The notes beneath the pieces were generated by a model that saw only the letters and a list, made by a program, of their open reading frames with translations, ran no database searches and was not told where the DNA came from. A stretch of 44,811 nt of DNA from a bacterium (GTDB lineage Bacteria > Desulfobacterota > Deferrisomatia > Deferrisomatales > Deferrisomataceae). This document shows, one piece after another, positions 20,556-35,900 of the stretch. The stretch spans positions 1 to 44,811 of the forward strand of contig JALUTY010000044.1 of assembly GCA_027021615.1 (NCBI GenBank), in the 5' to 3' direction. The position numbers and the translations under genes are program-made. The first letter of the stretch is position 1. Each line of letters begins with the position of its first letter.

Positions 20556-22583
20556 ATGGGTCTACCCTCCAAGCTGCTGCTGAGCTTCCTCGTCCTTTCT
20601 CTGGCCCCGATCGCCGTGATGACGGGGCTGTCCTTGAAGCACCTGGTCACCATCCAGGCCACGGCGGTGGACGAGACCCGTGCGCTCCTGATCTCGGCCC
20701 AGATCAATCGGATGACCGAGCGTCTGGGCCAGGAGTCCACCCGGTTGGCCAGCGTGTTCCGCCGGCTGCGCGACGAGATCCACGTGGTGCGGCGGTTCTC
20801 CGAGGAGCTGCTGTCCGAGCCGAAGGCGTTCTCCTACCGCAACGGCAGCCGGTACCGCTTGGCCCCGGACGGGAGCTACGGCAACGCCAGCGACGACGGG
20901 AACTCGGTGCTGTTCGTGCCCCGGTATCGGCCCGCACTGACCCCCTTGGCCCGGGCCACCGAGGCGTTCGACGTGGTGGCGAGGCCCCTGGTGGAACGGG
21001 AGGAACGGATCGTGCTCGCCTGGATCATCCTCAGGCAGGGGATGACCCGGGCCTACCCCTGGCGGGACTTCCGGGACATGCCTCGGGAGAAGGACTACAC
21101 GACCTGGCCCTTTTACTACCTGGCCGATCCTTCCCACAACCCGACCCGGGGAGAGGTGTTCACCGACCTCTACCTGGACCCCCTGAGCGGTGAGTGGATG
21201 ATCTCGTGTCTCTCCCCGGTCTATGTGGGGGGAGACCATGTGGCCACGGTGGGCATGGACGTAACCGTGGACAAGCTGCTCCGGGACATCGCGGCCATCC
21301 GGCTGTCGGCGGATTCCAGCTCGGCCTTGCTATCGGGGAGCAGAGTGCTTGCCGCCTCGGAGAACTTTCCTCTGGCCGCCCTCGGCCTTGACCCCTCTCG
21401 CCCGGCCCACGGTCAGGATCTGGGGGAGGCCGTGGAGCCTGAGGTGGCCGCCTTGTTCACCACCTTGCCCGCCACGGACGAGGGCGTCCGGTTCCTGAAG
21501 GGTGGGGGGCGGTGGTTCGTGGGGTCTGCAACGGTGGCCCCACCGGGGTGGCGTATCGCGATCCTGGTGCCCGAGGACGACGTGGTGGGCCCGGCTTACG
21601 AGAGTGCCGGCCGGATCCTGAGCGAGACCGACCGGATTCGGTCGAACTTCATCCACATCCTGGTGTTCGCCACCCTGGGGGTGCTGGGATTGACCTGGGT
21701 TGTGGCCGTTCACCAGTCCCGAGGGCTGCGCACCCTGCTTCGGGGTATCCGCCGAATCGGGGAGGGGGACCTCAAGCACCGGCTCCCGGAGGGGCGGGGG
21801 GACGCGGGACGGCTGGCGAGGGCCTTGAACTCCATGGCCGAGGGCCTCGAGCAGAAGAAACGGGAGCTGGAGCGGGTATACGCCGAGGTGGAGCAGGAAC
21901 GCAAGCTCTCGGCCGTAGGACGGCTGGCCGCGGGGGTGGCCCACGAGGTGAACAACCCCCTTGCCACCATCGCCACCTACGCCCAGCTGCTCCGGCGTCG
22001 GCCCGATCTGCCCTCTGAGGTGCAGGGTGACCTGAACGTGGTGCTCGGAGAGGTTCGCCGGATCCAGGACAAGGTGGGCGGGTTGCTCGACCTGGCGCGG
22101 ATCGAGACTCCGTGCCGGGTGTCCGCTGACCTCAACCGACTGGTCCGGGATGTGGTGGGGTTGGCCCGCCACGAGGCCGAGGCCAGGGGTTGCCTGCTGC
22201 GGACCGAGCTCGACCCGGCCCTGCCCGCCGTTCGAGTGGACCGCTCCGGCATGAAGCAGGTGCTGTGGAACCTGATCGGGAACGCCCTGGACGCCCAGGG
22301 AGCGGGGGGCTCCGTGTGGGTACGGACCTTGGGGCCGAACGGTCAGGGGCCGCGCCGGGTAGCTTTCGAGGTGGAGGACGAGGGGCCCGGCATCCCAGAG
22401 CACCTGCTGCCGAAGGTGTTCGAGCCGTTTTTTACCACCAAGGACGTGGGCCAGGGAACCGGCCTCGGGTTGCCGGTATCGTTTCGGATCGTGAGGAGCC
22501 ACGGTGGCCGAATGGAGGTCAAGAACCGTCGGCCTCGGGGCTGCGTGTTCCGGGTGGAGATTCCGGTGGAGGAGGACCCATGA
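20556..22583 (+). CDS. dCache/HAMP sensor histidine kinase
   Basis: A 675-residue protein from ATG 20556 (preceded by AAGGG). A membrane helix at residues ~5-27 and another near residue ~360 (FIHILVFATLGVLGLTWVVAV) bracket a large periplasmic region of about 330 residues. That region reads like a double Cache domain (PWRDFRDMPREKDYTTWPFYYLAD, SPVYVGGDHVATVGMDVTVDKLL). A HAMP domain (LRGIRRIGEGDLKHRLP) follows, then the H-box LAAGVAHEVNNPLATI and an ATPase domain with NLIGNALDAQGAGG, EDEGPGIP and GTGLGLPVSFRIV. dCache sensors bind small molecules such as amino acids, amines and organic acids. Its stop overlaps the start of the response regulator (ATGA), so the two are a translationally coupled pair. 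Confidence 0.95.
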   Translation: MGLPSKLLLSFLVLSLAPIAVMTGLSLKHLVTIQATAVDETRALLISAQINRMTERLGQESTRLASVFRRLRDEIHVVRRFSEELLSEPKAFSYRNGSRYRLAPDGSYGNASDDGNSVLFVPRYRPALTPLARATEAFDVVARPLVEREERIVLAWIILRQGMTRAYPWRDFRDMPREKDYTTWPFYYLADPSHNPTRGEVFTDLYLDPLSGEWMISCLSPVYVGGDHVATVGMDVTVDKLLRDIAAIRLSADSSSALLSGSRVLAASENFPLAALGLDPSRPAHGQDLGEAVEPEVAALFTTLPATDEGVRFLKGGGRWFVGSATVAPPGWRIAILVPEDDVVGPAYESAGRILSETDRIRSNFIHILVFATLGVLGLTWVVAVHQSRGLRTLLRGIRRIGEGDLKHRLPEGRGDAGRLARALNSMAEGLEQKKRELERVYAEVEQERKLSAVGRLAAGVAHEVNNPLATIATYAQLLRRRPDLPSEVQGDLNVVLGEVRRIQDKVGGLLDLARIETPCRVSADLNRLVRDVVGLARHEAEARGCLLRTELDPALPAVRVDRSGMKQVLWNLIGNALDAQGAGGSVWVRTLGPNGQGPRRVAFEVEDEGPGIPEHLLPKVFEPFFTTKDVGQGTGLGLPVSFRIVRSHGGRMEVKNRRPRGCVFRVEIPVEEDP

Positions 22584-24562: not shown

Positions 24563-25408
24563 ATGGCGAGACGGACTCTGGCGGTACTCGTGCTGGCGTT
24601 GCTGTGGGCAACCGCCAGCCAGGCGATCCTGGTGGACCCCTACGACAACATCCTGGCGCCGGACGGCTACTACGGCCTCGTGTACCTGAACTACTACCAG
24701 GCGGATGAGCTTGTGGGGCCCGACGGCGACAAGGCTGCGGACATCGACCTGACCGCCAAGGTCGCGATCGTGCGGCCGTTGGCCTACTTCCACGTGGGCC
24801 CGGTGCCGGCTGCGTTCCAGGTGATCGTGCCGTTCGGGAAGGTGGAGGAGACCGACCTGCTCGACGAGAGCTCCTCGGGCCTCGGGGACATCATCTTCGG
24901 CCCGGGGATCTTCCTGTACACCAACCAAGACACGAACACCTACGTGTCGTACTGGTTCTACGTGTTCACCCCCACCGGCGAGTGGGACAAGGACCAGGCC
25001 ATCAATCTGGGCCAGAACCACTGGTACTTCGAGCACCAGCTCGCGTTCAACCAGATCCTCGGCAAGTGGGTGCTCGACATGAATCTGAACTACTACCACC
25101 ACCTCGAGGAGCCCGACAACGACTGGAAGGCCCCCCCGCGGTTCGAGCTGGAGCTGAGCCTCGCCTACCAGCTGACCGACCGGCTGATCCTCGGCCTCAA
25201 CGGCGGCGGGTACTGGGACCTGGACAACGCGGAGATGGACGGTCAGGAAGTTGACGACACCAAGGCGAAGCGGATCCAGTTCGGCCCCACCCTCGGGTAC
25301 CAGATCACCGATCGGTTCGGGGCGAACCTGCGTTGGACCCGGGACCTGTCGGCCGCCAACGACGTGAAGGGCGACGACGTGTGGCTGCGGTTCTCCTACG
25401 CGTTCTGA
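24563..25408 (+). CDS. Outer-membrane transporter-like protein (phenol/MetA-pathway family)
   Basis: A 281-residue protein. ATG 24563 has a perfect AAGGAGG site 7 bases upstream. A signal peptide (RRTLAVLVLALLWATASQA) precedes a beta-rich body with aromatic and Gly-rich strands. The opening (LAPDGYYGLVYLNYY), FQVIVPFGKVE and GLGDIIFGPGIFLY match the Phenol_MetA_deg/SphA-like outer-membrane protein family, and the C-terminus ends in Phe (WLRFSYAF) as in outer-membrane barrels. It is the first gene of the quinohemoprotein amine dehydrogenase operon, 19 bases before qhpA, so I infer that it lets the amine substrate, or a hydrophobic relative, cross the outer membrane. Confidence 0.8.
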   Translation: MARRTLAVLVLALLWATASQAILVDPYDNILAPDGYYGLVYLNYYQADELVGPDGDKAADIDLTAKVAIVRPLAYFHVGPVPAAFQVIVPFGKVEETDLLDESSSGLGDIIFGPGIFLYTNQDTNTYVSYWFYVFTPTGEWDKDQAINLGQNHWYFEHQLAFNQILGKWVLDMNLNYYHHLEEPDNDWKAPPRFELELSLAYQLTDRLILGLNGGGYWDLDNAEMDGQEVDDTKAKRIQFGPTLGYQITDRFGANLRWTRDLSAANDVKGDDVWLRFSYAF

Positions 25409-25427
25409 AGGAAAGGAGCAGAGACCC

Positions 25428-26984
25428 ATGAAGGTTCGAATCCCCTTGGTACTGGCCGTCTCGATGCTCTGCGCCGGGATCGCCGCAGCTGGTTCGTTTT
25501 CTCCGGACTCGCTGGTCTGGAAGAAGTGCACCGGCTGCCACGAGCCCGTCAATGGGGTGATCCCCCGGGTGGAGGAGGTGCGCACCACCCCGGAGGAGTG
25601 GGCCGTGGTGGTCGAGCGAATGGCCCGGCTGCACGGCATGTCGCTCTCGGCGGGTGAGATGGAGCAGCTGCTCAAGGAGCTGTGCGCCACCCAGATGCTC
25701 CGGCCCGACGAGGAGGAGGCGGTCGCCTACCTGCGGCTGTTCAACAACACCCAGCACCAGGAGGCGCCCCGTGACAAGGACGAGGAGCTGCTGTTCGCCA
25801 CCTGCGTGCGGTGCCACAGCTTCGGGAAGATCGCGTCGTACCGCATGACCCCCGAGAACTGGGCGAAGCTGCGGGACTTCCACCTCTACATGGACCCGGC
25901 GATCCTGTTCCAGATGCGCGAGATGCACTGGATCCAGGAGGCGGACGCCGTGCTGGCCTACCTGGCGAAGCGGTTCCCGTACCAGGAGGCGTGGAAGGCC
26001 CCGAAGGCGGACCTGTCCGGCGAGTGGGTGGTGCTGGGGTACGAGCCCGGCAAGGGCACGTACCGGGGCACGGCCCGGTGGAAGGACGCGGGCGGGGGCG
26101 AGGCCTCGGTGGCCGGCACCCTGTGGTTTTCCGACGGCACCACCGAGGCGTTCCGGGGCGCGGGCACGGTATACGGGGGCTACGCCCTGCGCACCCGTAC
26201 CCGGCACAACGGGTTCGAGACCCGCGGCGCGTTCACCATCGACGGGGACGTGATCCGGGGGCAGCACCACTTCCCCGCCCCGGACTTCCGGACCTCGGCG
26301 AGCACCTGGTACCGCAACGACGGCAAGTCCCGGGTGCTGCGGGTCACCCCCGGGTACCTGCTTCCCGGCGAGGAGACCCGGGTGGTGCTGGAGGGGATGA
26401 ACCTGCCCGAGGTGTCGGCCGAGGACGTGTCGTTCGGTGGCTTCGTGGAGGTGCTGGCGGCCCGCAGGCTGGACCCGGGCGCGATCGAGGCGGTCGTGGT
26501 GAGCCGTCAGCCGGTCCTGGGCTCGGCCGAGGTGCGGGTCAAGGGCCTGCCGGCCGGTGAGGTGACCCTGGCGCCCCGGGTGGACTACATCGTGGTCACC
26601 CCGGCGGTGGGCCGGGCCCGGCTGGAAGGCGGGGCCTACTACCCGCCCGAAGGGGTCCAGTTCGAGGCCGTGGCCTACTCCAACGGCCGCGACGTGTGGG
26701 ACGGGGCCGACGACGTGGCCCTGGGGCCGGTGCCGGCTCGGTTCCACCTGGAGGAGGAGGTGACCCGGCCCGGCGACGACGACCTGGTCTGGCTGGGGGC
26801 CATCGAGCCCGACGGCACCTACATTCCGGTGGGCGACTACCGGCCGATCGCGGCCCGGGAGTACTCGGGCGAGGGGTCCGGCTGGGTGAAGGTGGTGGCC
26901 GAGTACGATCGGGGCGGCCGCACCTACCGGGCAGAGGCCCGCTTGGCGGTTACCGTGCCCGACTTCATCCGGAGGATCAAGTGA
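25428..26984 (+). CDS. qhpA: Quinohemoprotein amine dehydrogenase alpha subunit (di-haem)
   Basis: A 518-residue protein with a signal peptide (VRIPLVLAVSMLCAGIAAA). The N-terminal cytochrome domain has two haem c motifs, CTGCH at residues 34-38 and CVRCH at 126-130, as in the known alpha subunit. Beta-sandwich-rich domains follow (YEPGKGTYRGTARWKD, the section from TPGYLLPGEETRVVLEG, and an Ig-like tail ending in LAVTVPDFIRRIK). The alpha subunit carries electrons from the CTQ cofactor of the gamma subunit to periplasmic acceptors. Identification is supported by the conserved downstream order qhpA-qhpD-qhpC-qhpB. Its stop overlaps the GTG start of qhpD (GTGA). Confidence 0.95.
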   Translation: MKVRIPLVLAVSMLCAGIAAAGSFSPDSLVWKKCTGCHEPVNGVIPRVEEVRTTPEEWAVVVERMARLHGMSLSAGEMEQLLKELCATQMLRPDEEEAVAYLRLFNNTQHQEAPRDKDEELLFATCVRCHSFGKIASYRMTPENWAKLRDFHLYMDPAILFQMREMHWIQEADAVLAYLAKRFPYQEAWKAPKADLSGEWVVLGYEPGKGTYRGTARWKDAGGGEASVAGTLWFSDGTTEAFRGAGTVYGGYALRTRTRHNGFETRGAFTIDGDVIRGQHHFPAPDFRTSASTWYRNDGKSRVLRVTPGYLLPGEETRVVLEGMNLPEVSAEDVSFGGFVEVLAARRLDPGAIEAVVVSRQPVLGSAEVRVKGLPAGEVTLAPRVDYIVVTPAVGRARLEGGAYYPPEGVQFEAVAYSNGRDVWDGADDVALGPVPARFHLEEEVTRPGDDDLVWLGAIEPDGTYIPVGDYRPIAAREYSGEGSGWVKVVAEYDRGGRTYRAEARLAVTVPDFIRRIK

Positions 26985-28369
26985 GCGCCACCTACGCCTG
27001 GGCGGACCATCGCCTGTTCCGCTGGGACGGCGAACCCGTGCTCTACGGGGTGGACGACGTGAGCCTGTTTCACCTGGATCGCGAGGCGGCCGAGGTCCTG
27101 GCCCGGTGGCGGCCGGCCGAGCCCCTGGTGCTGGATCAAACCCCGCCCCAGGACCGCCCGGTGCTGGAAGCGTTTCGCCGGGCCCGGCTCCTGGTGCCGG
27201 CCCGGGCCCGGCGCCCCAGGCCCCGGCCTCCGGCGGGGACCCCCCTTTCCACCCTGGTGCTGGAGGTGGCCCAGGACTGCAACCTCGCCTGCCGGTACTG
27301 CTACGCAGACGGCGGCACCTACCACGGCGCCCCCCGGCTCCTCCCCCCCGCCGTGGCCCGGCGGGCCGCCCGGTACCTGGTGGACCGGTCCGGGTCCCAC
27401 GGGGAGGTGACCCTGGTCCTGTTCGGTGGGGAGCCCCTCTTGAACCTCCCCGCGGTGCGGGCCGCGGTGGACGAGGCCGAGACGGCCGCCCGGGCCGCGG
27501 GCAAACGGGTCCGGTTCAGCCTGACCACCAATGGCACCCTGGTCACCGAGGAGGTCTGCGAGTTCCTCCACCGGCACCGGGTGAGCGTGTCCGTGAGCCT
27601 GGACGGGCCGCCCGAGGTCCACGACGCCAACCGCCCCACCCGGGGGGGCTCGGGGTCGTACCGGGCCGCCCGCCGGGGGTTGGCCCTCCTCCTCGGGTCC
27701 CCCCGGGCGCCGGTGGCGGCCCGGGTCACCCTGCCGCCGGCCCAGTGGGATCGCATCCCCGAGGTGTTCGACCACCTGATCGGGCTCGGGGTCCACGAGG
27801 TGGGCATCGCGCCCGCAAGCCCGGTCACCCGGGATCTGCTCCCCACGGCCGAGCAGGAGGAGGCCCTGTTCGCGGGGTTCTCAGGGTTGGCGAACCGGTT
27901 CCTGGCGGCGGTGGGGAAGGGGGAGGTCCTTCCCTTCTCGAACCTGCTGGACCTCCTGGCCCGGATCCACCTGGGCGCCTCCCGTTCGGCGCCCTGCGGC
28001 GCCGGGCTCGGATACCTGGCCGTGGACACCGAGGGCCGCTTCTTTCTGTGCCATCGGCTGGTCGGAGAGGAGCCGTTCCGGGTGGGGGACCTGGACTCCG
28101 GTCCCCGGCCCGAGGCCATCCGGGGGTGCTTGGAGGCCTTGGCCGCGCCCCGGGAGGAGCCGTGCTCCCGGTGCTGGGCCCGGGCCCTGTGCCGGGGCGG
28201 CTGCCACTACGAGAACCATCTGCGGGAAACCGTGCTGGGGTTGCCGTTCGGGGGGACCTGCGGGTTCGTGCGCCGGTGGATCGAGCTGGGCATCCGGGTG
28301 TACGCCCGGTTGTGCGCCTCGGGTCACGAGGAGCTGCTCGGCCGGATCGGGGCCCGGGCCCGCTGCTGA
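26981..28369 (+). CDS. qhpD: Radical SAM/SPASM enzyme that crosslinks the gamma subunit
   Basis: A 462-residue protein from GTG 26981, with GGAGG 5 bases upstream and a 4-base overlap with qhpA. The longer frame from 26696 lies inside qhpA and is not used. The radical SAM cluster is CNLACRYCY (Cys100, 104, 107). The C-terminal SPASM-type region contains CGAGLGYLAVDTEGRFFLC and then CSRCWARALCRGGCHYEN, giving ligands for auxiliary iron-sulfur clusters. In the Paracoccus system QhpD forms the three Cys-to-Asp/Glu thioether bonds of QhpC before the Cys-Trp bond is made. A short N-terminal extension of about 90 residues probably binds the precursor. Confidence 0.95.
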   Translation: MSATYAWADHRLFRWDGEPVLYGVDDVSLFHLDREAAEVLARWRPAEPLVLDQTPPQDRPVLEAFRRARLLVPARARRPRPRPPAGTPLSTLVLEVAQDCNLACRYCYADGGTYHGAPRLLPPAVARRAARYLVDRSGSHGEVTLVLFGGEPLLNLPAVRAAVDEAETAARAAGKRVRFSLTTNGTLVTEEVCEFLHRHRVSVSVSLDGPPEVHDANRPTRGGSGSYRAARRGLALLLGSPRAPVAARVTLPPAQWDRIPEVFDHLIGLGVHEVGIAPASPVTRDLLPTAEQEEALFAGFSGLANRFLAAVGKGEVLPFSNLLDLLARIHLGASRSAPCGAGLGYLAVDTEGRFFLCHRLVGEEPFRVGDLDSGPRPEAIRGCLEALAAPREEPCSRCWARALCRGGCHYENHLRETVLGLPFGGTCGFVRRWIELGIRVYARLCASGHEELLGRIGARARC

Positions 28370-28381
28370 GATTACGCCCAC

Positions 28382-28399
28382 ACCGCCCTCCCGGGCGGT
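28382..28399 (+). other. Intercistronic hairpin between qhpD and qhpC
   Basis: ACCGCCC, a TCCC loop and GGGCGGT form a perfect 7-pair stem, 25 bases before the qhpC start. There is no T-run, so it is not a typical terminator. It may stabilise the 5' end of the qhpC message and raise gamma-subunit dosage. A second imperfect stem (GAACCGG at 28764-28770 with CCGGTTC at 28794-28800) lies between qhpC and qhpB. Confidence 0.45.
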
Positions 28400-28424
28400 C
28401 CAGAAAAACCGGAAGGAGCGAGAG

Positions 28425-28760
28425 ATGAGCGACAAGAAGGCGGTCTTGAAAGCCCTCAACGAGAAGGCCCGGGCCATCGAGACGTTGGCCGAGGGGGAGG
28501 AGGAGAGCGCGAGGGCGCTGCAGGAAGGCCCTCCCGGCATGCCCGCCGGCTGCACCACGGTGTTCGACACCGGATGGGAGACCAACCCCCGGCCCACGTA
28601 CCCCGTGGGCAACTGCCAGGCCTCGGCCCGGGACTTCCACGGATGCGCCGGGGACTGCTGGTGGCCGGCCCAGGTCCCGGACGGCCTCACCAACCACCCC
28701 GACGTGGACAAGCAGTGCCCCAACGTGGCCCGGGACTGGCGGAAACTCCAATACGATTGA
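28425..28760 (+). CDS. qhpC: Quinohemoprotein amine dehydrogenase gamma subunit precursor (CTQ)
   Basis: A 111-residue precursor. The crosslinking residues all lie at the known spacings: Cys43 with Glu52 (9 apart, GCTTVFDTGWE), Cys64 with Asp70 (6 apart), Cys78 with Asp86 (8 apart), and Cys74 with Trp80 in CAGDCWWPAQVPD (6 apart), the future cysteine tryptophylquinone. These match the known pairs 7-16, 27-33, 41-49 and 37-43. Residues 1 to about 36 form a charged helical leader that QhpE would remove. An extra Cys98 (VDKQCPNV) has no partner in the known scheme. The start ATG 28425 has GGAAGGAG 6 bases upstream. It has no signal peptide, so export needs the ABC transporter. Confidence 0.97.
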   Translation: MSDKKAVLKALNEKARAIETLAEGEEESARALQEGPPGMPAGCTTVFDTGWETNPRPTYPVGNCQASARDFHGCAGDCWWPAQVPDGLTNHPDVDKQCPNVARDWRKLQYD

Positions 28761-28821
28761 CCGGAACCGGCCAGACCATGCCCGGGGTTCTCACCGGTTC
28801 GGACTGCGGAAAGGAGCAGCC

Positions 28822-29832
28822 ATGAGAAGAACTTCCCTGATCGGAGTCGTCACGGCCCTCGCCGTGGGCCTGGTTTCGTTCCAGGCCTCGGCGAAGGATC
28901 TCTTCTACTACATCGGCAACGGGGTGATCCAGGTGATCGACGGCGACACCGACGACATCGTCGCCGACATCCCGGCCGAGGGGTGGCTGCGGGAGTCGGC
29001 GCTGTCGCCGGACAAGCGCTACCTGTACGTCACGGCGAGGCGTCACCTCATCCACAAGGTGGACCTGAAGGCGAACAAGGTGGTCCAGACCCTCGACGTG
29101 AGCGGCGGGGGGTGGGATCGGTTCATCTACGGGTTCGACGTGGCCCCGGACGGCAAGACCGCGTACGCGTCCATCCGGGCCCGCACGACCGAAGGAGGAG
29201 AGGTGGTCGTGAAGCCGCCCCGGCTCTCCCAACTCGACCTGGCCACGGGCAAGGTGCTGCGGACCCTGGAGCTGCCTTGGGACGCCGCCACCCTGACCAC
29301 GGTGCGCGACGGCCGCATGGTCTACGTGATCGGGAAGGACCTCTACAAGATCGACGTCTCCGACGACCAGATGCGCCTGGTGGAGACGTACCCCATGTAC
29401 GAGAAGCAGATGAACTTCCTGCCCTTCTGGAACTACGCCTGGGAGAACGGCGGGGTGTTCATGGCCAACTACTACACCCCCGAGCTCATGGGGCTCCTGG
29501 CGATCGACAAGAAGACCGGAGAGATCCGGGACACGCCGCTCAACGGCATCCCGGTGTTCGCATACTCGGTGATCTACTCCCCCGACAAGAAGAAGGCCTA
29601 CGGCGTGATGGACGAGCTCAACGTGATCGACCTGGAGACGAAGACCTACGAGTCGATCACGGTGAACCACCAGGGCACCTGCTACGGGATCAACGTGTCG
29701 AGCGACGGCTCCAAGGTCTACGTGGGCGGGGGGGGATCCACGGTGACGGTGTTCGACGCCCGGACCCTGCGGCCGCTCAAGGTGCTCCAGATGGCCACCG
29801 ACGGCATGGATCTGCGGCGGGTGACATTCTGA
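28822..29832 (+). CDS. qhpB: Quinohemoprotein amine dehydrogenase beta subunit (beta-propeller)
   Basis: A 336-residue protein with a signal peptide (LIGVVTALAVGLVSFQASA). The body is made of repeated beta-strand units (VIDGDTDDIVADI, YLYVTARRHLIHKVDL, VYVIGKDLYKIDV, VYVGGGGSTVTVFDA), as expected for the seven-bladed propeller that packs against the gamma subunit in the periplasm. AAGGAG lies 7 bases before ATG 28822. Its place directly after qhpC follows the known qhp gene order. Confidence 0.95.
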   Translation: MRRTSLIGVVTALAVGLVSFQASAKDLFYYIGNGVIQVIDGDTDDIVADIPAEGWLRESALSPDKRYLYVTARRHLIHKVDLKANKVVQTLDVSGGGWDRFIYGFDVAPDGKTAYASIRARTTEGGEVVVKPPRLSQLDLATGKVLRTLELPWDAATLTTVRDGRMVYVIGKDLYKIDVSDDQMRLVETYPMYEKQMNFLPFWNYAWENGGVFMANYYTPELMGLLAIDKKTGEIRDTPLNGIPVFAYSVIYSPDKKKAYGVMDELNVIDLETKTYESITVNHQGTCYGINVSSDGSKVYVGGGGSTVTVFDARTLRPLKVLQMATDGMDLRRVTF

Positions 29833-29906
29833 CCCCTCCCGCACGCCGGGCGGGGGCTTCCTCTCCGGCCCCCGGCCGGCGCGCGATTTTCCGCACCCCA
29901 AGGCAG

Positions 29907-30725
29907 ATGGCCATGGAATACGGTTGGAGGGCGAGGGAACCCGGAGCGGTGCCGCAAGACCCGTGGGCGTGGTGCCCCCGCGGTTGGGAAAGGGCCCTTC
30001 CGCCGGGGCGGGTCACTGCGCTCTATTTCGGCTCGGAGTTCTGCCAGGACGCGCTACCCCTGCCGGAACGGGTCGGCGATTGGGTGGAGTCGGCGCGGGA
30101 TCAGGATCTGGTCCCCGTTCTCCTCACCCCCCTCGTCACCTCGCGCGGCGTGCCCCGGGTGGTCAGGCTTCTGGAGGCCTTGGCCGGTGCTGCCCCCCGG
30201 GCAGAGGTGGTGTGCAACGACGTGGGCGTGTTGCGGGTCGTCCGCTCGAGGTTCTCCGGGCTTCGGCCGCGGGCCGGACGCGTGTGGAACCGGGCGCTGC
30301 GGGATCCCCGACCGGGCGCCAGGCCCCCAAACGGGGAAGCCGACAGGGCCCGGCGTCTTCGCCGGTTCCTTGCCGACATGGGGGTTCGGGCCATCGAGAC
30401 CGACCCGGATCTCGTCGGCGGGTTCCTAGGCGCCGGTGGGGAGGGGCTCGAGCGGACCCTCCATCTCCCCTTCGCGTTTGTCGCGAGCGGCCGGAACTGC
30501 CTGGTGCGGGCCGACGAGGGCGGAGGCCCCCCGGATGACTGGGTTTCCGGAGGTCCGTGCGGGGCTGCCTGCTGCAAAGGGGCCCGGCGGATCCTTCGCA
30601 GCGACGTGCCGGGCCCGTTGTGGCGGGCCGGGAACACGCTGTTCCGGGAGGCGGCGGAAGAGGACGTTCGCCGCGATGTCGTCCGCGCCGACCGGGTGGT
30701 GTTGCACGAGGAGCCCCTGCCGTGA
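29907..30725 (+). CDS. U32-family protein, UbiV-like; proposed oxygen-independent hydroxylase subunit
   Basis: A 272-residue protein from ATG 29907 (AAGG just upstream; ATG 29913 is also possible). The frame in which it lies extends upstream through qhpB, but that is a shadow. The fold is recognised from YFGSEFCQDALPLPERVGDWVE near the start and FVASGRNCLVRAD followed by GPCGAACCKGARR. The Cys positions (46, 198, 218, 222) correspond to the four [4Fe-4S] ligands of E. coli UbiV (39, 180, 193, 197), with the last two exactly four apart. UbiV acts with UbiU as an oxygen-independent ring hydroxylase. The next gene overlaps by 4 bases (GTGA) and is the UbiU-like partner. The function here is inferred from context. 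Confidence 0.8.
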   Translation: MAMEYGWRAREPGAVPQDPWAWCPRGWERALPPGRVTALYFGSEFCQDALPLPERVGDWVESARDQDLVPVLLTPLVTSRGVPRVVRLLEALAGAAPRAEVVCNDVGVLRVVRSRFSGLRPRAGRVWNRALRDPRPGARPPNGEADRARRLRRFLADMGVRAIETDPDLVGGFLGAGGEGLERTLHLPFAFVASGRNCLVRADEGGGPPDDWVSGGPCGAACCKGARRILRSDVPGPLWRAGNTLFREAAEEDVRRDVVRADRVVLHEEPLP

Positions 30726-31690
30726 CGGCCATCCTCGCCCCCGTGCGGCATCCGGACGAGGTGGCCCCGCTGCTCTCGGCAGGGGCCCGGGAGTTCTACT
30801 GCGGGATCACCCCGCCGTTCTGGTCCCTCGAAGGGCGGGAATGGGCCAACCGCCGCGACCCGAGGAGCGCCGGGGTCGGAGGGGAGGGGGCCCTCCGCCG
30901 GGTGGTCGAGGAGGCACGGGGTTCTCCCGTATACGTGACCCTGAACGCCCCCTGGTACCCTGGGGACGCGGTCGAGGCCCTGGCCGCTTACGGCTCCCAT
31001 CTCCTCGAGGAAGTCGGTGCGGCGGCGTTGATTGTGTCCGATCTGGAACTCCTGTTGGCGTTGGCGGAGTGGGGGTTGGCCCACCGGGTTCATCTGTCCA
31101 GCGTGGCCGCCTGCACCAACTCGGAAGCCGTTCGGTTTTTCCGGGACCTGGGGGTCCGAAGGGTCATCCTTCCCCGGCATCTGGCGCTCGACGAGATCGG
31201 GGCGGCGCGGGTGCCGGGTGTGGAGCTCGAGGTCTTCCTTTTGAACGACGGCTGCGTGTTCGAGGAGGGGCTGTGCGCCACGACCCACCGGCTCGGCCCG
31301 TTTTGCCTGGGGGACGGACCCGGGACGGAAGGGGTGGGAGCCGAGGCGGTGGACCGGTACGAGTTCTGGAAGTGGACCCGGAACAACTGCGGATGCCGCA
31401 CGAACCGAGGGATCCCCCTGGGACCCTGCGGTCTGTGCGCCCTGCCGCGGTTTCTGGGGTGGGGCATCGAGAGCCTGAAGGTGGTGGGCCGGGAGGCGTC
31501 GCTGCCCCGGAAGGTGGGCTCGGTCCGTCTGGCCGCCCGGGGGATGGAGATCGCCCGGTCCGGCGGGGGGCCGGAGGAGATCCGGGAGGCCGTGATCGGG
31601 ATGCGGGGGGCGGCTGGGCTGTGCGAGGGGGGGCGCTTGTGTTACTACCCCGAGGTGTGGCGGGGAGAACCCAGGAGGGCGGCGTGTTGA
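30722..31690 (+). CDS. U32-family protein, UbiU-like; proposed oxygen-independent hydroxylase subunit
   Basis: A 322-residue protein from GTG 30722, overlapping the previous stop. The TIM-barrel-like U32 body is plain: APVRHPDEVAPLLSAGAREFYCG, VYVTLNAPWYPGDAVEAL, ALIVSDLELLLAL and VHLSSVAACTNSEAVRFF. The family signature follows: LEVFLLNDGCVFEEGLC, giving Cys178 and Cys185 at the standard C-x6-C spacing. Further Cys residues (195, 223, 225, 236, 239) could complete one or two iron-sulfur clusters. U32 proteins were named peptidases, but UbiU, RlhA and TrhP hydroxylate substrates without O2. Being in a qhp operon that lacks qhpG, it is proposed to help hydroxylate the CTQ Trp. A peptidase role is possible but unlikely. 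Confidence 0.85.
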   Translation: MTAILAPVRHPDEVAPLLSAGAREFYCGITPPFWSLEGREWANRRDPRSAGVGGEGALRRVVEEARGSPVYVTLNAPWYPGDAVEALAAYGSHLLEEVGAAALIVSDLELLLALAEWGLAHRVHLSSVAACTNSEAVRFFRDLGVRRVILPRHLALDEIGAARVPGVELEVFLLNDGCVFEEGLCATTHRLGPFCLGDGPGTEGVGAEAVDRYEFWKWTRNNCGCRTNRGIPLGPCGLCALPRFLGWGIESLKVVGREASLPRKVGSVRLAARGMEIARSGGGPEEIREAVIGMRGAAGLCEGGRLCYYPEVWRGEPRRAAC

Positions 31691-33372
31691 GGGACCTGCA
31701 CGAGTTCGCCCGACACCTGCGGGGCAAGGGGCCCACGCTCTTCCTGCTCCTGGGCCTGGGGTTTGCCGGGGCCGGGGTGTCGCTCTCGAGCCCCCTTCTG
31801 GCGAAGGCCTTCGTGGACGCCGTGGCGACCCGGGGGGACTACACCGTGGTGCCGTGGATCGCCGGGGGGCTGGTCGGCGTGGCCCTGCTGGACCTGGGCC
31901 TGGGCGTCGTGATCCGGCTGGTGCATACGCGGCTCTCGGCCGCGCTCCTCACGGAACTGCGGCAACGGCTCCTGGAGCACTGCCTGTGCGCCCGGCTGGA
32001 CGAGCTGGAGGGGTACCGGCACGGGGACCTCCTCAGCCGGTTCGGCACGGATATCCCCCAGGTCCAAGGGCTCCTGGTGGACGGCGTGCTGGGGGGGCTG
32101 CGCAATCTCCTGACGCTCGGGGTGGCGGCGGTGATCCTGGTCCGGATGCACCCGGGCCTTGCCGCGTGGAGCTTCCTGGGGGTGGCCGCGGCATTGACCG
32201 CCGCCGTCTGGTTCCGCCGACCGGTGGAGGCCCACGCCCGGCGAACCCGTCTCGCCATGGTGGATCTCTCCCATTTCCTGGCGGAACGCCTGGCCGCGCT
32301 CCGGCCGATTCGGATCCACGGGGCCGTCGGGGAGGAGCTGGGGCGGTTCCTCGGGGTGCAGCGGACCCTGGTTCGGCGGGTGGTGGCCTTTCAGGGGGTG
32401 GACGCCGCGGCCGGAGGGGTTCCCGGGCTTCTCCTGACGTGCAGCCTGGCGTGGATCTACTGGATGGGCGGAGGGCTCCTGGAGTCCGGGAGCCTGACCC
32501 TGGGCACGTTCGTGGCGTTCGTTCTGTATCAGGGACGCCTGTTCGGGCCGGCCCAGGGCCTGCTGGGACTGGTCCGAGGGCTCCAGGAGGCAAAGGTGAG
32601 CGTTTCGAGGGTTGCGGAGCTGCTCCGGCTGGCCCGGGAGCCCACGGCGCCTCCGACGCGTCGGCCCGAACCGGAGAGGCTCGTGCGCTTTTCGCGCGTC
32701 TCGTTCTCCTACCCGGGAAGAGAGCGGCTCCTCGAAGGGGTCGACCTCGACCTGGGGCCCGGCGAACGGGTGGTGCTGATCGGGGCGTCGGGCGCCGGGA
32801 AGTCGACCCTGGTGCAGCTCCTGTTCGGGCTTCGGTCTCCCGGGGTGGGCACCGTGCGCCTCGGGGGGGAGGATCCCAGGGCCATGCCCCCGCCCGAGCT
32901 GCGCCGGTGGATCGGGTACGCCGGCGCCGAACCGTTTCTCCTCCACGCAACGGTGGAGGAGAACCTCTGCTACGCCCGGCCCGACGCCACGGAGGCCGAG
33001 ATGCTGGAGGCGGCCCGGATCGCCTGCGCGCACGGCTTCATCCTTTCGCTTCCCCAGGGCTACCGGACCGTGATCGGGGGGCGCGGGCTGACCCTGTCGG
33101 ACGGCCAGCGCCAGCGCCTGGGGTTGGCCCGCCTCGTTCTCCAGGCGCCCCGGGTGTTCGTCCTGGACGAGGCCCTGAGCGGGCTCGATCCGGAAACCGA
33201 GCGGCGGGTGTGGGAAAACCTCACGGGGGCCTTTCCCGACCGGTCGTTCCTGGTGATCACCCACCGGCCGGAGCGGCTTTCCGGGGTGGGGAGAGTCCTT
33301 CGACTGGAGCACGCACGCCTTGTCCCGGCATCCATCCCGGATGAACCGAACCTGCGTACCCACTCCCCTTGA
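31684..33372 (+). CDS. qhpF: ABC exporter for the gamma subunit, QhpF-like
   Basis: A 562-residue half-transporter with transmembrane and ATPase domains in one chain. GTG 31684 follows AGGAGG by 5 bases; TTG 31687 would also fit. About six membrane helices lie in the first 300 residues. The ATPase has Walker A GASGAGKST at about residue 367, signature LSDGQRQ near 471, Walker B VFVLDEALSGLD and the H-loop ITHR. In the Paracoccus system QhpF carries the crosslinked gamma subunit to the periplasm. Assignment is by position, since the sequence is a general peptide-exporter type. The start lies inside the end of the previous gene, suggesting coupled translation. Confidence 0.85.
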   Translation: MLRDLHEFARHLRGKGPTLFLLLGLGFAGAGVSLSSPLLAKAFVDAVATRGDYTVVPWIAGGLVGVALLDLGLGVVIRLVHTRLSAALLTELRQRLLEHCLCARLDELEGYRHGDLLSRFGTDIPQVQGLLVDGVLGGLRNLLTLGVAAVILVRMHPGLAAWSFLGVAAALTAAVWFRRPVEAHARRTRLAMVDLSHFLAERLAALRPIRIHGAVGEELGRFLGVQRTLVRRVVAFQGVDAAAGGVPGLLLTCSLAWIYWMGGGLLESGSLTLGTFVAFVLYQGRLFGPAQGLLGLVRGLQEAKVSVSRVAELLRLAREPTAPPTRRPEPERLVRFSRVSFSYPGRERLLEGVDLDLGPGERVVLIGASGAGKSTLVQLLFGLRSPGVGTVRLGGEDPRAMPPPELRRWIGYAGAEPFLLHATVEENLCYARPDATEAEMLEAARIACAHGFILSLPQGYRTVIGGRGLTLSDGQRQRLGLARLVLQAPRVFVLDEALSGLDPETERRVWENLTGAFPDRSFLVITHRPERLSGVGRVLRLEHARLVPASIPDEPNLRTHSP

Positions 33373-33389
33373 GACCCGGAGGGACCCTC

Positions 33390-35099
33390 ATGGCGCGGAT
33401 TCTTCGCATCGACCTTTCCCAGAAGCGGTTTTCGTTTGAGGACCTGCCCGATGCCTGGCAGGGGCTGGGGGGCCGGGGGCTCACCTCGGCCGTGGTGGCG
33501 GAGGAGGTGCCGCCCGATGCCGACCCCCTGGGGCCCGAGAACCGGCTGGTGCTGGCGCCGGGCCTGCTGGCCGGGACGGCGGCGCCCAACAACGGGCGCC
33601 TGTCGGTAGGGGCCAAGAGCCCGCTCACCGGAACCATCAAGGAGTCCAACGCCGGCGGCTCCTTCGCCCAGAAGCTCGCCCGTCTCGGCGTGGCCGCGGT
33701 GGTGCTCGAGGGGAGCGCTCCGGACCCGGTGACGGTGACGATCCGGGCCGCAGGGGTGGAGCTCGAGCCCGCCGGCGACCTGTGGGGGAAGGGCGCGTAC
33801 CAAGCGGCCGACGCCCTGGGCGCCCGCTGCCCCGGCTGCGGCATCGCCCTGGTGGGGCCCGCCGGGGAGAGGGGGTGCCGGGCGGCGGCGGTCTGCGTGA
33901 CCACGCCCGACGGGTTCCTGCGCACGGCCGCCCGGGGCGGGTTGGGGGCGGTCATGGGCTCCAAGGGGGTCAAGGCCGTGGTGGTGGACGACGCGGGCGG
34001 GCCGGGCGCCTCGGTGGCCGATCCGGACCGGTTCCGGGCGGCTGCAAAGACCCTGTCGGAGGGCATCGCGGCCCACCCCATCGTGGGCGGGTTCCAGGCC
34101 CTGGGCACCTCGATGCTGGTGGGGCTGATCAACGAGCTGGGGGGGCTGCCCACTCGCAACTACTCGGCGGGCCGGTTCGAGGGCGCCCCCCGGATCGCAG
34201 GGGAGGCCTTGGCCGAGATCATGGCGGCCCGGCCCAACGCGAGCCCCCGCCACCGGTGCATGGCCGGGTGCCTGATCCACTGCTCCCAGGTGTACACGGC
34301 CGAGGACGGCGAGGTGATCACCTCGGGGTTCGAGTACGAGACCCTCGGGATGGTGGGGAGCAACTGCGCCATCGACGACCCGGACGCCATCGCCCGGATC
34401 GACCGGCTGTGCGACGACCTGGGGCTCGACACCATGGAGGTCGGGGCCGCGGCCGCGGTGGCCATGGAGGCGGGCGCCCTTCCCTGGGGCGACGGGGCGG
34501 CCCTGCTGGAGGCCCTGGCCTCGGTGCCCTCGGGCGGAAGGCTGGGGCTCCTCCTGGCCGGGGGCTCGGTGGCCACGGGCCGGGAGCTCGGCGTGGCCCG
34601 GGTGCCGGCGGTCAAGGGCCAGGCCATGGCCGCCTACGACCCCCGGTGTCTCAAGGGCACGGGGGTGACCTACGCCACGAGCCCCATGGGCGCGGACCAC
34701 ACCGCGGGCAACGTGCTGCCGAGCCCGGCCAACCCCGACTACGACCCGACCAAGCCGGAGGGGCAGCACCAGGTCTCCGAGTTCGTGCAGTGCTACTTCG
34801 CGGCCGTGGACACCCTGGGCCTGTGCCTGTTCGCCTCGCTCCCTGTGGTGGAGAGCGAGGAACTCCAGGCCGCCCTGGCCGAGGCCGTGGCCGCCAAGCT
34901 AGGCCACGAGATGCCCGGGGGCTCGTTGATCGGGCTCGGCCGGCGGGTGTGCCTGACCGAGAAGGGGTTCAACCGGCGGGCCGGGTTCGGGCCGAGGCAC
35001 GACCGGCTGCCCGGCTTCTTCGCCCGGGAGCCGCTGCCGCCCCACGGCCACGTGTGGGACGTGCCGGACGCGGACCTGGACCGGGTGTTTGCAGAGTGA
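33390..35099 (+). CDS. Aldehyde:ferredoxin oxidoreductase family (tungsten/molybdenum)
   Basis: A 569-residue protein from ATG 33390, with GGAGGG 6 bases upstream; the TTG at 33369 overlapping the ABC stop is less likely. The N-terminal domain has LRIDLSQ, GGRGLTS and APNNGRLSVGAKSPLTG, typical of AOR. The cluster ligands are Cys290, Cys294, Cys298 (spacing C-x3-C-x3-C; many AORs have C-x2-C-x3-C) and Cys479. AOR enzymes oxidise aldehydes to acids and reduce ferredoxin, with a tungsten-pterin cofactor. There is no signal peptide, so it is cytoplasmic. It lies between the ABC exporter and the QhpE-like protease, so I infer that it oxidises the aldehyde made from amines by the dehydrogenase. 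Its stop overlaps the protease start. Confidence 0.93.
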   Translation: MARILRIDLSQKRFSFEDLPDAWQGLGGRGLTSAVVAEEVPPDADPLGPENRLVLAPGLLAGTAAPNNGRLSVGAKSPLTGTIKESNAGGSFAQKLARLGVAAVVLEGSAPDPVTVTIRAAGVELEPAGDLWGKGAYQAADALGARCPGCGIALVGPAGERGCRAAAVCVTTPDGFLRTAARGGLGAVMGSKGVKAVVVDDAGGPGASVADPDRFRAAAKTLSEGIAAHPIVGGFQALGTSMLVGLINELGGLPTRNYSAGRFEGAPRIAGEALAEIMAARPNASPRHRCMAGCLIHCSQVYTAEDGEVITSGFEYETLGMVGSNCAIDDPDAIARIDRLCDDLGLDTMEVGAAAAVAMEAGALPWGDGAALLEALASVPSGGRLGLLLAGGSVATGRELGVARVPAVKGQAMAAYDPRCLKGTGVTYATSPMGADHTAGNVLPSPANPDYDPTKPEGQHQVSEFVQCYFAAVDTLGLCLFASLPVVESEELQAALAEAVAAKLGHEMPGGSLIGLGRRVCLTEKGFNRRAGFGPRHDRLPGFFAREPLPPHGHVWDVPDADLDRVFAE

Positions 35100-35794
35100 G
35101 CCCGGCGGTGCCGGTTCGGCTGCGGGTGGGGGTGGTGGACACCGGCGTGAACCCCTGGCACTCCCACGTGCGGGGGGCCGTGGCCGGGTGCCGGGTGTTC
35201 CTGGACGCCCGGGGCCGCATCCGGGAGGACGGGGAGTTCTTTGACCCGGTGGGCCACGGCACCGCGGTGGCCGGCGTGCTGCGCCAGGAGCTCCCCAGAG
35301 CCGAGATCTACGCCGTGCGCGTGTTCGGGGCCGGGCTCACCACCTACCCCTCCCTGGTGGCCCGGGGGATGCTCCGGGCGGCGGCCGAGGGCTGCGCGGT
35401 GATCAACCTGAGCCTGGCCGTGCCCCCGGGCCCCGGGGCCGCCCTGATCGCGGAGGCGTGCGGCCTGGTGCGCCGGGCCGGATGCCGGGTGGTGGCCGCA
35501 GGGGATGCCGGCGGTCGGGTCGTTCTGCCCGCCGCCCTGCCCGGGGTGCTGGGGGTGGTGGCGGACGATGCGCTGGCCGACGGCGAGGTGGGGGTCGGGG
35601 GCGGGCCCTACCCGTTTCGGGCCCCGGGCCGGCCCCGGGACCTGGCCGGGCTCCCCCGGGGGGCCAACCTGCTGGGGGGATCGTTCGCCTGCGCCCGGGT
35701 CGCGGCCCGGGCGGCCCGGGATCCGGCATGGGCCGAAAAGGCCCTTGACCGGACCGGCCGATCTGAGTATAAAGGCCGCCTTACGGGCGATTAG
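35096..35794 (+). CDS. qhpE: Subtilisin-like protease, QhpE-like, processes the gamma-subunit leader
   Basis: A 232-residue S8-family protease from GTG 35096. The catalytic triad is Asp15 (VGVVDTGVN), His54 (VGHGTAVAG) and Ser196 (LGGSFACARVA). The residue normally providing the oxyanion Asn is Asp137 (VVAAGDAGG). It has no signal peptide and no prodomain, so it is cytoplasmic, as expected for leader removal before export. Its size and place in the qhp operon match QhpE. The last 17 codons contain a tRNA promoter, and the stop codon TAG uses bases 8-10 of tRNA-Val, so the C-terminus SEYKGRLTGD is set by the tRNA sequence. Confidence 0.9.
   Translation: MSPAVPVRLRVGVVDTGVNPWHSHVRGAVAGCRVFLDARGRIREDGEFFDPVGHGTAVAGVLRQELPRAEIYAVRVFGAGLTTYPSLVARGMLRAAAEGCAVINLSLAVPPGPGAALIAEACGLVRRAGCRVVAAGDAGGRVVLPAALPGVLGVVADDALADGEVGVGGGPYPFRAPGRPRDLAGLPRGANLLGGSFACARVAARAARDPAWAEKALDRTGRSEYKGRLTGD
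35745..35773 (+). promoter_or_regulatory. Sigma-70-type promoter for tRNA-Val, inside the qhpE end
   Basis: TTGACC at 35745-35750 and TATAAA at 35768-35773 with a 17-base spacer, near consensus. The tRNA begins 12 bases after the -10 box. Confidence 0.8.
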
Positions 35795-35859
35795 CTCAGC
35801 GGGAGAGCACTGGCCTCACATGCCAGGGGTCGCAGGTTCAATCCCTGCATCGCCCACCA
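35785..35859 (+). tRNA. tRNA-Val, anticodon CAC
   Basis: The acceptor stem pairs GGGCGAT with ATCGCCC. The D-arm begins TAGCTCAGC. The anticodon stem CTGGC/GCCAG holds the loop CTCACAT with CAC at 34-36, reading GTG codons. The T-arm contains GGTTCAATCC. The CCA end is encoded (35857-35859). The 5' end overlaps the qhpE reading frame by 10 bases. Confidence 0.97.
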
Positions 35860-35870
35860 TGCCATGGCAA

Positions 35871-35900
35871 GGGACTCGGAAGCGTTTCCGGGTCCCTTTT
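35871..35900 (+). terminator. Rho-independent terminator after tRNA-Val
   Basis: GGGAC and the following bases pair with GTCCC through an 11-pair stem containing one G-T pair, with a short loop, ending in TTTT and more T downstream. It ends the tRNA transcript and probably also qhp readthrough. Confidence 0.85.

What the first reader, a model, noticed from the sequence alone, without database searches (positions are those of the whole stretch)
24563..35794. An anaerobic-type CTQ amine dehydrogenase operon in which a UbiU/UbiV-like U32 pair replaces QhpG
Seen: qhpA, D, C and B in the standard order, with an ABC exporter and a subtilase, but no flavin monooxygenase anywhere in the operon; at the equivalent place are two coupled U32 genes (29907-30725, 30722-31690). 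Known: in Paracoccus, QhpG is the FAD monooxygenase that hydroxylates the CTQ-precursor Trp with O2, while UbiU/UbiV and RlhA are U32 hydroxylases that work without O2 (RlhA depends on prephenate). Inference: the pair hydroxylates the Trp of QhpC without O2, allowing CTQ to be made anaerobically. I am not aware of a description of this arrangement.
Basis: partly seen in the sequence, partly recalled or inferred. Interest (0 to 1): 0.95.

Follow-up and report, generated by a model that had tools for sequence, protein, structure and literature searches.

The report
Oxygen-free maturase for a quinone enzyme
In Deferrisoma, Geobacter relatives and some Pseudomonadota, the genes for an amine dehydrogenase predicted to carry a quinone made from its own tryptophan lack the usual oxygen-using maturation gene and hold in its place a gene pair, one clearly and the other probably related to oxygen-independent hydroxylases, that likely builds this cofactor without oxygen.

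Summary
U2 is a clear UbiU-like U32 protein. U1 matches no family model; its four invariant cysteines resemble UbiV's and its model's top fold hit is a solved U32 structure. No QhpG reaches the family cut-off in the genome. Among 33 qhpC-bearing genomes, 22 have U2 and no QhpG, 11 have QhpG and no QHNDH-type U2, none has both or neither. In one class, strong U1 matches occur in 14 of 14 qhpC genomes and 0 of 230 others. In a distant genome (G086), qhpD-U1-U2-qhpF-qhpE form a maturation cluster apart from two qhpA-C-B sets. All CTQ and thioether residues of QhpC are invariant. Best reading: an O2-independent U32 pair replaces QhpG and hydroxylates the CTQ-precursor Trp80. No chemistry was tested. 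The two operon types are one bipartition on QhpD and QhpA trees, so the exclusion rests on few evolutionary events. Nine searches of an open-licence library showed no description.

The parts
20556..22583 (+). Sensor histidine kinase upstream, likely regulator (association inferred)
   Evidence: ORF; a homologue of 380 bits or more lies upstream of the operon in L013, L014, L015, L051, L058, L129, L132, and a partial one (110 bits) at the edge of L107
22580..23977 (+). NtrC-type response regulator (named by sight of the sequence)
   Evidence: ORF; one sigma-54-type pattern (recalled consensus) searched in the window, 0 matches
24563..25408 (+). Outer-membrane porin-like protein, first gene of the operon
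   Evidence: PF13557 139.9 bits; homologue at the same place in L012-L015, L051, L058, L107
25428..26984 (+). qhpA, alpha subunit (haem-binding)
   Evidence: TIGR03908 297.4 bits over cut-off; PF09098, PF14930, PF09100 over cut-off
26981..28369 (+). qhpD, radical SAM maturase (thioether cross-links)
   Evidence: TIGR03906 best hit, 315.4 bits, below cut-off 453; one clade with other U32-type QhpD
28425..28760 (+). qhpC, gamma-subunit precursor; predicted CTQ from Cys74 + Trp80
   Evidence: NF037958 120.4 bits; C43, E52, C64, D70, C74, C78, W79, W80, D86 invariant in 20 of 20 aligned QhpC including a Paracoccus one
28822..29832 (+). qhpB, beta subunit
   Evidence: TIGR03907 best NCBIfam hit, 125.4 bits, below cut-off 223.2
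29907..30725 (+). U1 (working name QhpV): UbiV-like half of the proposed Trp hydroxylase
   Evidence: Only four Cys (46, 198, 218, 222) reach 95% conservation in 138 aligned rows and are in all of them; UbiV invariant Cys are C39, C180, C193, C197 in 8 of 8; AF2 model pLDDT 84.1, top Foldseek hit U32 structure 5d88, E 1e-5; no family-model hit
30722..31690 (+). U2 (working name QhpU): UbiU-like U32 half of the proposed Trp hydroxylase
   Evidence: PF01136 90.9 bits; hhalign to an 8-row UbiU alignment 99.6%, P 7e-25, C178/C185 aligned to C169/C176; Cys131, 178, 185, 195, 236, 239 in 28 of 28 sequences
31687..33372 (+). qhpF, ABC exporter (TTG start overlapping the U2 stop)
   Evidence: PF00664, PF00005; overlap
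33390..35099 (+). Aldehyde:ferredoxin oxidoreductase (AOR); likely takes the aldehyde product
   Evidence: PF02730 225.4 and PF01314 235.7 bits
35096..35794 (+). qhpE, subtilisin-like leader protease
   Evidence: NF049966 best hit, 122.1 bits, below cut-off 165; PF00082 39.3 bits

Best explanation
This is a quinohemoprotein amine dehydrogenase operon whose Trp-hydroxylation step is likely carried out by a UbiU/UbiV-like U32 pair (U2/U1), without O2, in place of the flavin monooxygenase QhpG. Shown by the calls: the gene order, the absence of QhpG over cut-off, the co-occurrence and mutual exclusion in the panel, the invariant CTQ and thioether residues of QhpC, the UbiU relationship of U2, and the cysteine pattern and predicted fold of U1. 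Inferred steps: U1 and U2 form a heterodimer, each with a [4Fe-4S] cluster; it acts in the cytoplasm on QhpC that QhpD has cross-linked and still holds by its leader; it takes oxygen from an organic donor, probably prephenate, and puts two hydroxyls on Trp80 (C7 then C6, as proposed for QhpG); QhpE removes the leader, QhpF exports the subunit, and oxidation to CTQ with the Cys74-Trp80 bond is completed in the periplasm by the QhpA haems. The mature enzyme would oxidise amines to aldehydes anaerobically; in Deferrisoma and most Geobacter-type loci the AOR would take the aldehyde.
For: (a) Whole-genome absence of QhpG: own genome best 78.8 bits, cut-off 240; 0 of 14 U2-bearing genomes over cut-off. 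(b) Exclusion over 33 qhpC genomes: 22 with U2 at 297-588 bits and no QhpG; 11 with QhpG at 407-588 bits and best U2-model match 59.9 bits; 0 both, 0 neither (18, 36, 44, 111). One order holds both types: G161 and G1081 U2; G431, G1064 and G1148 QhpG. (c) U1 at 384-453 bits in the 14 qhpC genomes and in 0 of the 230 genomes without qhpC in the same draw. (d) Of 14 loci fetched by U2, 13 have the pair between qhpB and qhpF; the 14th is cut by the contig end. (e) G086: qhpD-U1-U2-qhpF-qhpE cluster apart from two qhpA-C-B sets on other contigs. (f) QhpC residues. (g) U2-UbiU; U1 cysteines and fold. (h) Literature: QhpG uses O2 and dihydroxylates Trp43 (PMC7876137, Introduction and Discussion read, passages of the rest); UbiUV hydroxylates aromatic rings without O2 and can stand in for the flavin monooxygenases UbiI/H/F (PMC10470549, passages); prephenate as oxygen source (PMC11574389, passages).
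Against: No biochemistry. U1 has no family-model match, and hhalign against an 8-sequence UbiV alignment is weak (P 0.002-0.003, probability 10-13%). U2 is far below the UbiU equivalog cut-off (62.4 against 440 bits) and carries more conserved cysteines than UbiU's four. Both operon types are single sides of one branch on QhpD and QhpA trees, so the 33-genome exclusion is close to one evolutionary split; formal odds such as 5e-9 overstate it. Nine of the 33 were not drawn blind to U2. The genome has 47 weak flavoprotein matches to the QhpG model; one could in principle do the job. In G086 only 89 of 179 first-look QhpG candidates were scored. The U2 copy in G003 has an in-frame TAG. Dihydroxylation of one ring by one U32 pair is extrapolated.
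Confidence: 0.78

Rival explanations
1. The U32 pair adds only one hydroxyl to the Trp (like GoxA/LodA/MADH precursors), and the second oxygen comes later, from water or by oxidation through the QhpA haems.
For: Other tryptophylquinone systems split the two oxygen insertions (PMC7876137 Discussion). No second candidate oxygenase is among the operon's family matches.
Against: QhpG, the enzyme apparently replaced, adds both; the UbiUV pair substitutes for UbiI, UbiH and UbiF, i.e. at more than one ring position (passages; ring positions recalled).
Confidence: 0.2
2. The pair is a UbiUV- or RlhA/TrhP-like enzyme for a lipid quinone or RNA and sits in the operon by chance or for co-regulation.
For: The review names ubiquinone precursors and RNA bases as the substrates of characterised U32 oxidases (PMC11574389 passages).
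Against: Strong U1 matches track qhpC: 14 of 14 against 0 of 230; the pair stays between qhpD and qhpF even where the structural genes lie elsewhere (G086); no UbiT-like (SCP2) domain among the operon's family matches.
Confidence: 0.05
3. The pair acts on QhpC but not by Trp hydroxylation: as a peptidase, a cross-linking helper of QhpD, or a modifier of another residue such as the extra Cys98.
For: U32 proteins are named as peptidases; the 19 other aligned QhpC have Cys98, which the Paracoccus one lacks.
Against: The leader protease QhpE is present as well; the pair stands in for the hydroxylase gene in the 22 U2-type of 33 genomes; UbiU relatives are hydroxylases.
Confidence: 0.1
4. Hydroxylation is done by an unrecognised flavoprotein coded elsewhere, and the U32 pair has an accessory role.
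For: Own genome has 47 weak matches to the QhpG model, best 78.8 bits.
Against: Weak matches also occur in all 14 control genomes and as second copies in four QhpG-type genomes or more (115-181 bits). An O2-using flavoprotein would not serve an anaerobe (anaerobic life of Deferrisoma and Geobacter recalled, not tested).
Confidence: 0.05

Closest known systems
Paracoccus/Pseudomonas qhp operon (qhpABCDEFGR) with QhpG
   Same: QhpA, B, C, D, E, F all present; same CTQ and thioether residues in QhpC
   Different: No QhpG; a U32 pair between qhpB and qhpF; AOR rather than the aldehyde dehydrogenase family gene seen near the Paracoccus kondratievae operon; QhpD, QhpB and QhpE below curated cut-offs
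UbiU/UbiV (anaerobic ubiquinone hydroxylase pair)
   Same: Two coupled genes; U2 homologous to UbiU over 277 columns; U1 keeps a UbiV-like four-cysteine pattern
   Different: No UbiT-like gene in the operon; predicted substrate is a protein Trp; far below the UbiU equivalog cut-off; extra conserved cysteines in U2; U1 undetected by family models
RlhA and TrhP (RNA hydroxylases of the U32 family)
   Same: U32 domain; TrhP is U2's second NCBIfam hit (53.4 bits)
   Different: Act on RNA (passages); U2 is paired with U1; RlhA and TrhP as single longer proteins is recalled
GoxB/LodB and MauG (other tryptophylquinone maturases)
   Same: Complete a Trp-derived quinone in a partner protein
   Different: Flavin or di-haem proteins, not U32 proteins, and they act on a mono-hydroxylated Trp (PMC7876137 Discussion)

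Membership tests
Quinohemoprotein amine dehydrogenase (QHNDH) operon | alpha and gamma subunits over curated cut-offs | tested here: met
   QhpA 297.4 against 274.35; QhpC 120.4 against 50
Quinohemoprotein amine dehydrogenase (QHNDH) operon | CTQ and three-thioether residues in QhpC | tested here: met
   Nine residues invariant in 20 of 20 aligned sequences; their pairing is from the Paracoccus/Pseudomonas numbering, partly recalled
Quinohemoprotein amine dehydrogenase (QHNDH) operon | QhpD, QhpB, QhpE over curated cut-offs | tested here: not met
   Best hits are the right families but 315.4/453, 125.4/223.2, 122.1/165; the genes are divergent, not absent
Quinohemoprotein amine dehydrogenase (QHNDH) operon | QhpG flavin monooxygenase | tested here: not met
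   No match over 240 bits in the whole genome
U32 (PF01136) | family model over cut-off, U2 | tested here: met
   90.9 against 22.4 bits
U32 (PF01136) | family model over cut-off, U1 | tested here: not met
   0 of 17 U1 proteins match PF01136 at E 10
U32 (PF01136) | U32 fold, U1 | tested here: inconclusive
UbiU equivalog (NF047963) | score over curated cut-off, U2 | tested here: not met
   62.4 against 440 bits
UbiU equivalog (NF047963) | four cluster cysteines, U2 | tested here: inconclusive
   C178 and C185 align with C169 and C176; partners of C193 and C232 not resolved, residues 178-189 have pLDDT under 50
UbiV | four cluster cysteines, U1 | tested here: inconclusive
   Four and only four Cys kept in all of 138 U1 rows, as in 8 of 8 UbiV; hhalign places only C46 on C39; the other three are matched by eye from sequence context
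UbiV | sequence homology, U1 | tested here: inconclusive
   hhalign P 0.0021 and 0.0032, aligned region ends at residue 129
U32 oxidases | O2-independent, prephenate-dependent hydroxylation | not testable with these tools
   Needs labelling experiments

The most novel reading that the evidence does not exclude
A U32 pair is an O2-independent peptidyl-tryptophan dihydroxylase: the first U32 oxidase acting on a protein, and the anaerobic counterpart of QhpG. It defines an ancient second branch of CTQ amine dehydrogenases that assemble a protein-derived quinone with no oxygen at any step.
Probability: 0.72. Interest if true: 0.93.

Novelty: new variant of a known kind. Interest (0 to 1): 0.88.

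Why it matters
The described routes to tryptophyl- or topa-type quinone cofactors that I know of use O2 or peroxide at some step (recall; QhpG shown in PMC7876137). If a U32 pair makes CTQ, protein-derived quinones need not depend on oxygen, anaerobes could use primary amines through a periplasmic, haem-linked dehydrogenase, and the U32 oxidases gain a third substrate class besides lipid quinone precursors and RNA. It also gives a small, genetically encoded, single-protein substrate on which the unsolved U32 chemistry (oxygen donor, role of the clusters) can be followed by mass spectrometry.

Tried and rejected

Results against or dropped. Weak U1-like matches are common in Desulfuromonadia without qhpC (43 of 244 genomes, 62-129 bits); they score well under half of the qhpC-linked set and are treated as a separate family. 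In one search at most 10 first-look candidates were scored per genome. G1110 was dropped from the 33-genome count: its qhpC match is 23.2 bits, below the cut-off of 50, with a stop inside. The centre genomes G154 and G161, and six others of the class draw (G148-G151, G156, G159), had been found through U2 before they turned up in the draws; without these eight and the own genome the split is 13 U2-only and 11 QhpG-only of 24. The G003 U2 was left out of alignments A1 and A3 because of its stop, and L054 was left out of A3. For the trees, frames under 430 aa (QhpD) or 470 aa (QhpA) were dropped: 33 of 39 and 34 of 39 possible rows remained; G003 and G004 are missing from the QhpD tree and G086 from the QhpA tree. 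L054, titled a beta proteobacterium, groups with Geobacter on both trees and may be a misassigned bin.
Full report
What is there. The window is contig C44 of a 4.25 Mb, 97.8% complete genome. The closest named relative of its U1 protein is from Deferrisoma camini (63%), and same-genus relative G002 is a single contig of 4,236,551 bases, the length listed for that D. camini contig; so the organism is a Deferrisoma. The operon runs porin (24563), qhpA, qhpD, qhpC, qhpB, U1, U2, qhpF, AOR, qhpE (to 35794), with overlapping stop and start codons at four junctions.

No QhpG. A Paracoccus qhp locus gave the QhpG yardstick, recognised by NCBIfam NF049967 at 417.7 bits. With that model the window's genome has no match over the cut-off of 240; the best of 47 is 78.8 bits, on another contig. 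The five qhpC-bearing relatives in the same search also have none (best 104.9 bits, in G086, where 89 of 179 candidates were scored).

Panel. QhpC (NF037958) was searched in four draws: 148 relatives (6 positive), 397 genomes of the phylum of G161, a genome titled Burkholderiales (10 positive, completeness 90 asked for), 244 of the class of Geobacter argillaceus (14 positive), and 399 of the order of G161 (6 at E 0.001, 5 over cut-off, of which 2 already known and 3 new). That makes 33 distinct genomes over cut-off. U2 was searched in all 33 with a 16-row alignment and QhpG in all 33. Result: 22 with U2 (297-588 bits) and no QhpG; 11 with QhpG (407-588 bits) and no U2-model match above 60 bits; 0 both; 0 neither. 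Within the order of G161, two genomes are of the U2 type and three of the QhpG type. Nine of the 33 are not a draw blind to U2: the own genome, and eight (G148-G151, G154, G156, G159, G161) that had first been found through U2; without them the split is 13 to 11 of 24.

Reverse direction. Searching U1 in the same class draw gave strong matches (384-453 bits) in exactly the 14 genomes with QhpC and in none of the other 230 (at most 10 candidates scored per genome). A weaker family (62-129 bits) occurs alone in 43 genomes and as a second match in five of the 14.

Context. One pattern scan of genome contigs with the U2 alignment returned 14 loci, titled Geobacter, other Desulfuromonadales or Deltaproteobacteria, and beta/gammaproteobacterial or Pseudomonadota bins. 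All 14 carry U1 just before U2 and qhpF after it; qhpC and qhpB precede in 13, and the 14th contig ends inside U1. The other U32-type loci fetched show the same order as far as their contigs reach. In G086, a remote member of the phylum, qhpD-U1-U2-qhpF-qhpE stand together on one contig while two qhpA-C-B sets lie on two other contigs. This links the pair to maturation. AOR occurs in 15 U32-type loci counting the window, two of these cut by a contig end or by the fetched stretch; it was not found in L051, L055, L057, L059, L061, L062, L063, L147 or in the G086 stretch L106, and could not be judged in L012, L054, L058, L060 and L133, which end too early. So it is a lineage feature, not part of the core.

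Substrate. In 20 aligned QhpC proteins, including Paracoccus, the residues equivalent to the three thioether pairs and the CTQ pair (C43/E52, C64/D70, C78/D86, C74/W80) and W79 are invariant. The pairing is taken from the Paracoccus/Pseudomonas numbering (partly recall).

The pair. U2 aligns with eight UbiU over 277 columns at 99.6% probability, P 7e-25, with C178 and C185 on UbiU C169 and C176. Six cysteines are kept in 28 of 28 U2 proteins and four more (C27, C223, C301, C307) in 27 of 28; the G003 copy ends at its stop, which would account for C301 and C307. That is more than UbiU's four; a second cluster is possible but untested. U1 has no family match. In 138 aligned U1 rows (17 from loci, 120 listed of 462 database hits, one from G086; some rows repeat each other), C46, C198, C218 and C222 are the only cysteines kept in at least 95%, and they are in all. 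UbiV's invariant cysteines are C39, C180, C193, C197 in 8 of 8. hhalign supports only the first part, weakly, and places C46 on C39; the other three are matched by eye (SGRNC with SARC; CxxxC with CxxxC). The AF2 model of U1 (pLDDT 84.1) has the U32 structure 5d88 as top Foldseek hit (E 1e-5 against 3.6e-4 for the next) and as top VIA row, tied with CutC. I regard U1 as a probable, very divergent UbiV relative.

Trees. QhpD (33 of 39 possible rows) and QhpA (34 of 39; short frames dropped) each split U32-type from QhpG-type on one branch, 100/100. So the hydroxylase type is inherited with the rest of the operon, and Pseudomonadota U32-type operons group with those of Desulfuromonadia and Deferrisoma. 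This explains the clean exclusion and also limits its weight: it is close to one old event plus, perhaps, transfer of whole operons. What the trees do show is that the pair has been kept over all that divergence. One 'beta proteobacterium' bin (L054) groups with Geobacter and may be misassigned.

Mechanism. QhpG adds two oxygen atoms from O2 to Trp43 of cross-linked QhpC, in a complex with QhpD, in the cytoplasm (PMC7876137, Introduction and Discussion read, other sections as passages). UbiUV hydroxylates aromatic rings without O2, substitutes for the flavin monooxygenases UbiI/H/F, and each half has a [4Fe-4S] cluster (PMC10470549, passages). The oxygen donor in anaerobic ubiquinone synthesis is reported as prephenate (PMC11574389, passages). 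The substitution UbiI/H/F to UbiUV is thus mirrored by QhpG to U1-U2. Dihydroxylation, donor, cluster content and partner contacts remain inference.

Novelty. Searches for QHNDH with QhpG, with U32 and with Geobacter, for CTQ with anaerobic, U32 with tryptophan hydroxylase, tryptophylquinone with UbiU, Deferrisoma with amine dehydrogenase, QHNDH alone, and U32 peptidase with amine dehydrogenase showed no description. I saw their listings; of the listed papers I opened only PMC7876137 and passages of PMC3023750. The library holds open-licence papers only, so a description elsewhere cannot be excluded. The system is filed as a new variant of the QHNDH operon; the pair works like UbiUV, but U2 is not a member of the UbiU equivalog family by its cut-off, and U1's place in UbiV is unproved.

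Noticed in passing
window 33390-35099: Aldehyde:ferredoxin oxidoreductase gene inside the operon, where a Paracoccus kondratievae locus has an aldehyde dehydrogenase family gene nearby; suggests ferredoxin-linked disposal of the aldehyde product.
   Followed up: partly
window 20556-23977: Histidine kinase and NtrC-type response regulator directly upstream; kinase homologues lie upstream of the operon in several Deferrisoma-order and Geobacter-type loci.
   Followed up: partly
L106, L016, L017 (G086): One maturation cluster (qhpD-U1-U2-qhpF-qhpE) for two separate qhpA-C-B sets with no qhpD match beside them; multihaem cytochrome-like genes (by sight) follow qhpB in both.
   Followed up: partly
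L137 5513-6277; L135; L136: A second, shorter U1-like family (open frames 224-281 aa; the one read shows similar cysteine motifs) in 43 of 244 Desulfuromonadia genomes without qhpC; the one scanned has no Pfam match; function unknown.
   Followed up: partly
L109 6516-7499 (own genome, C122) and L108: A second UbiU-like U32 protein (about 127-186 bits to the U2 model) in Deferrisoma-order and some Geobacter-type genomes; no qhp or U1-like gene in the two stretches read.
   Followed up: partly
L014 near 5986: The G003 copy of U2 carries an in-frame TAG about four fifths along; intact copies exist in the other genomes. Assembly error, real mutation or readthrough not distinguished.
   Followed up: no
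window 28425-28760: The 19 other aligned QhpC have a Cys at position 98 that the Paracoccus QhpC lacks.
   Followed up: no
window 35785-35859: tRNA-Val(cac) overlaps the last codons of qhpE; a 13-pair terminator-like stem follows at 35869-35898.
   Followed up: no
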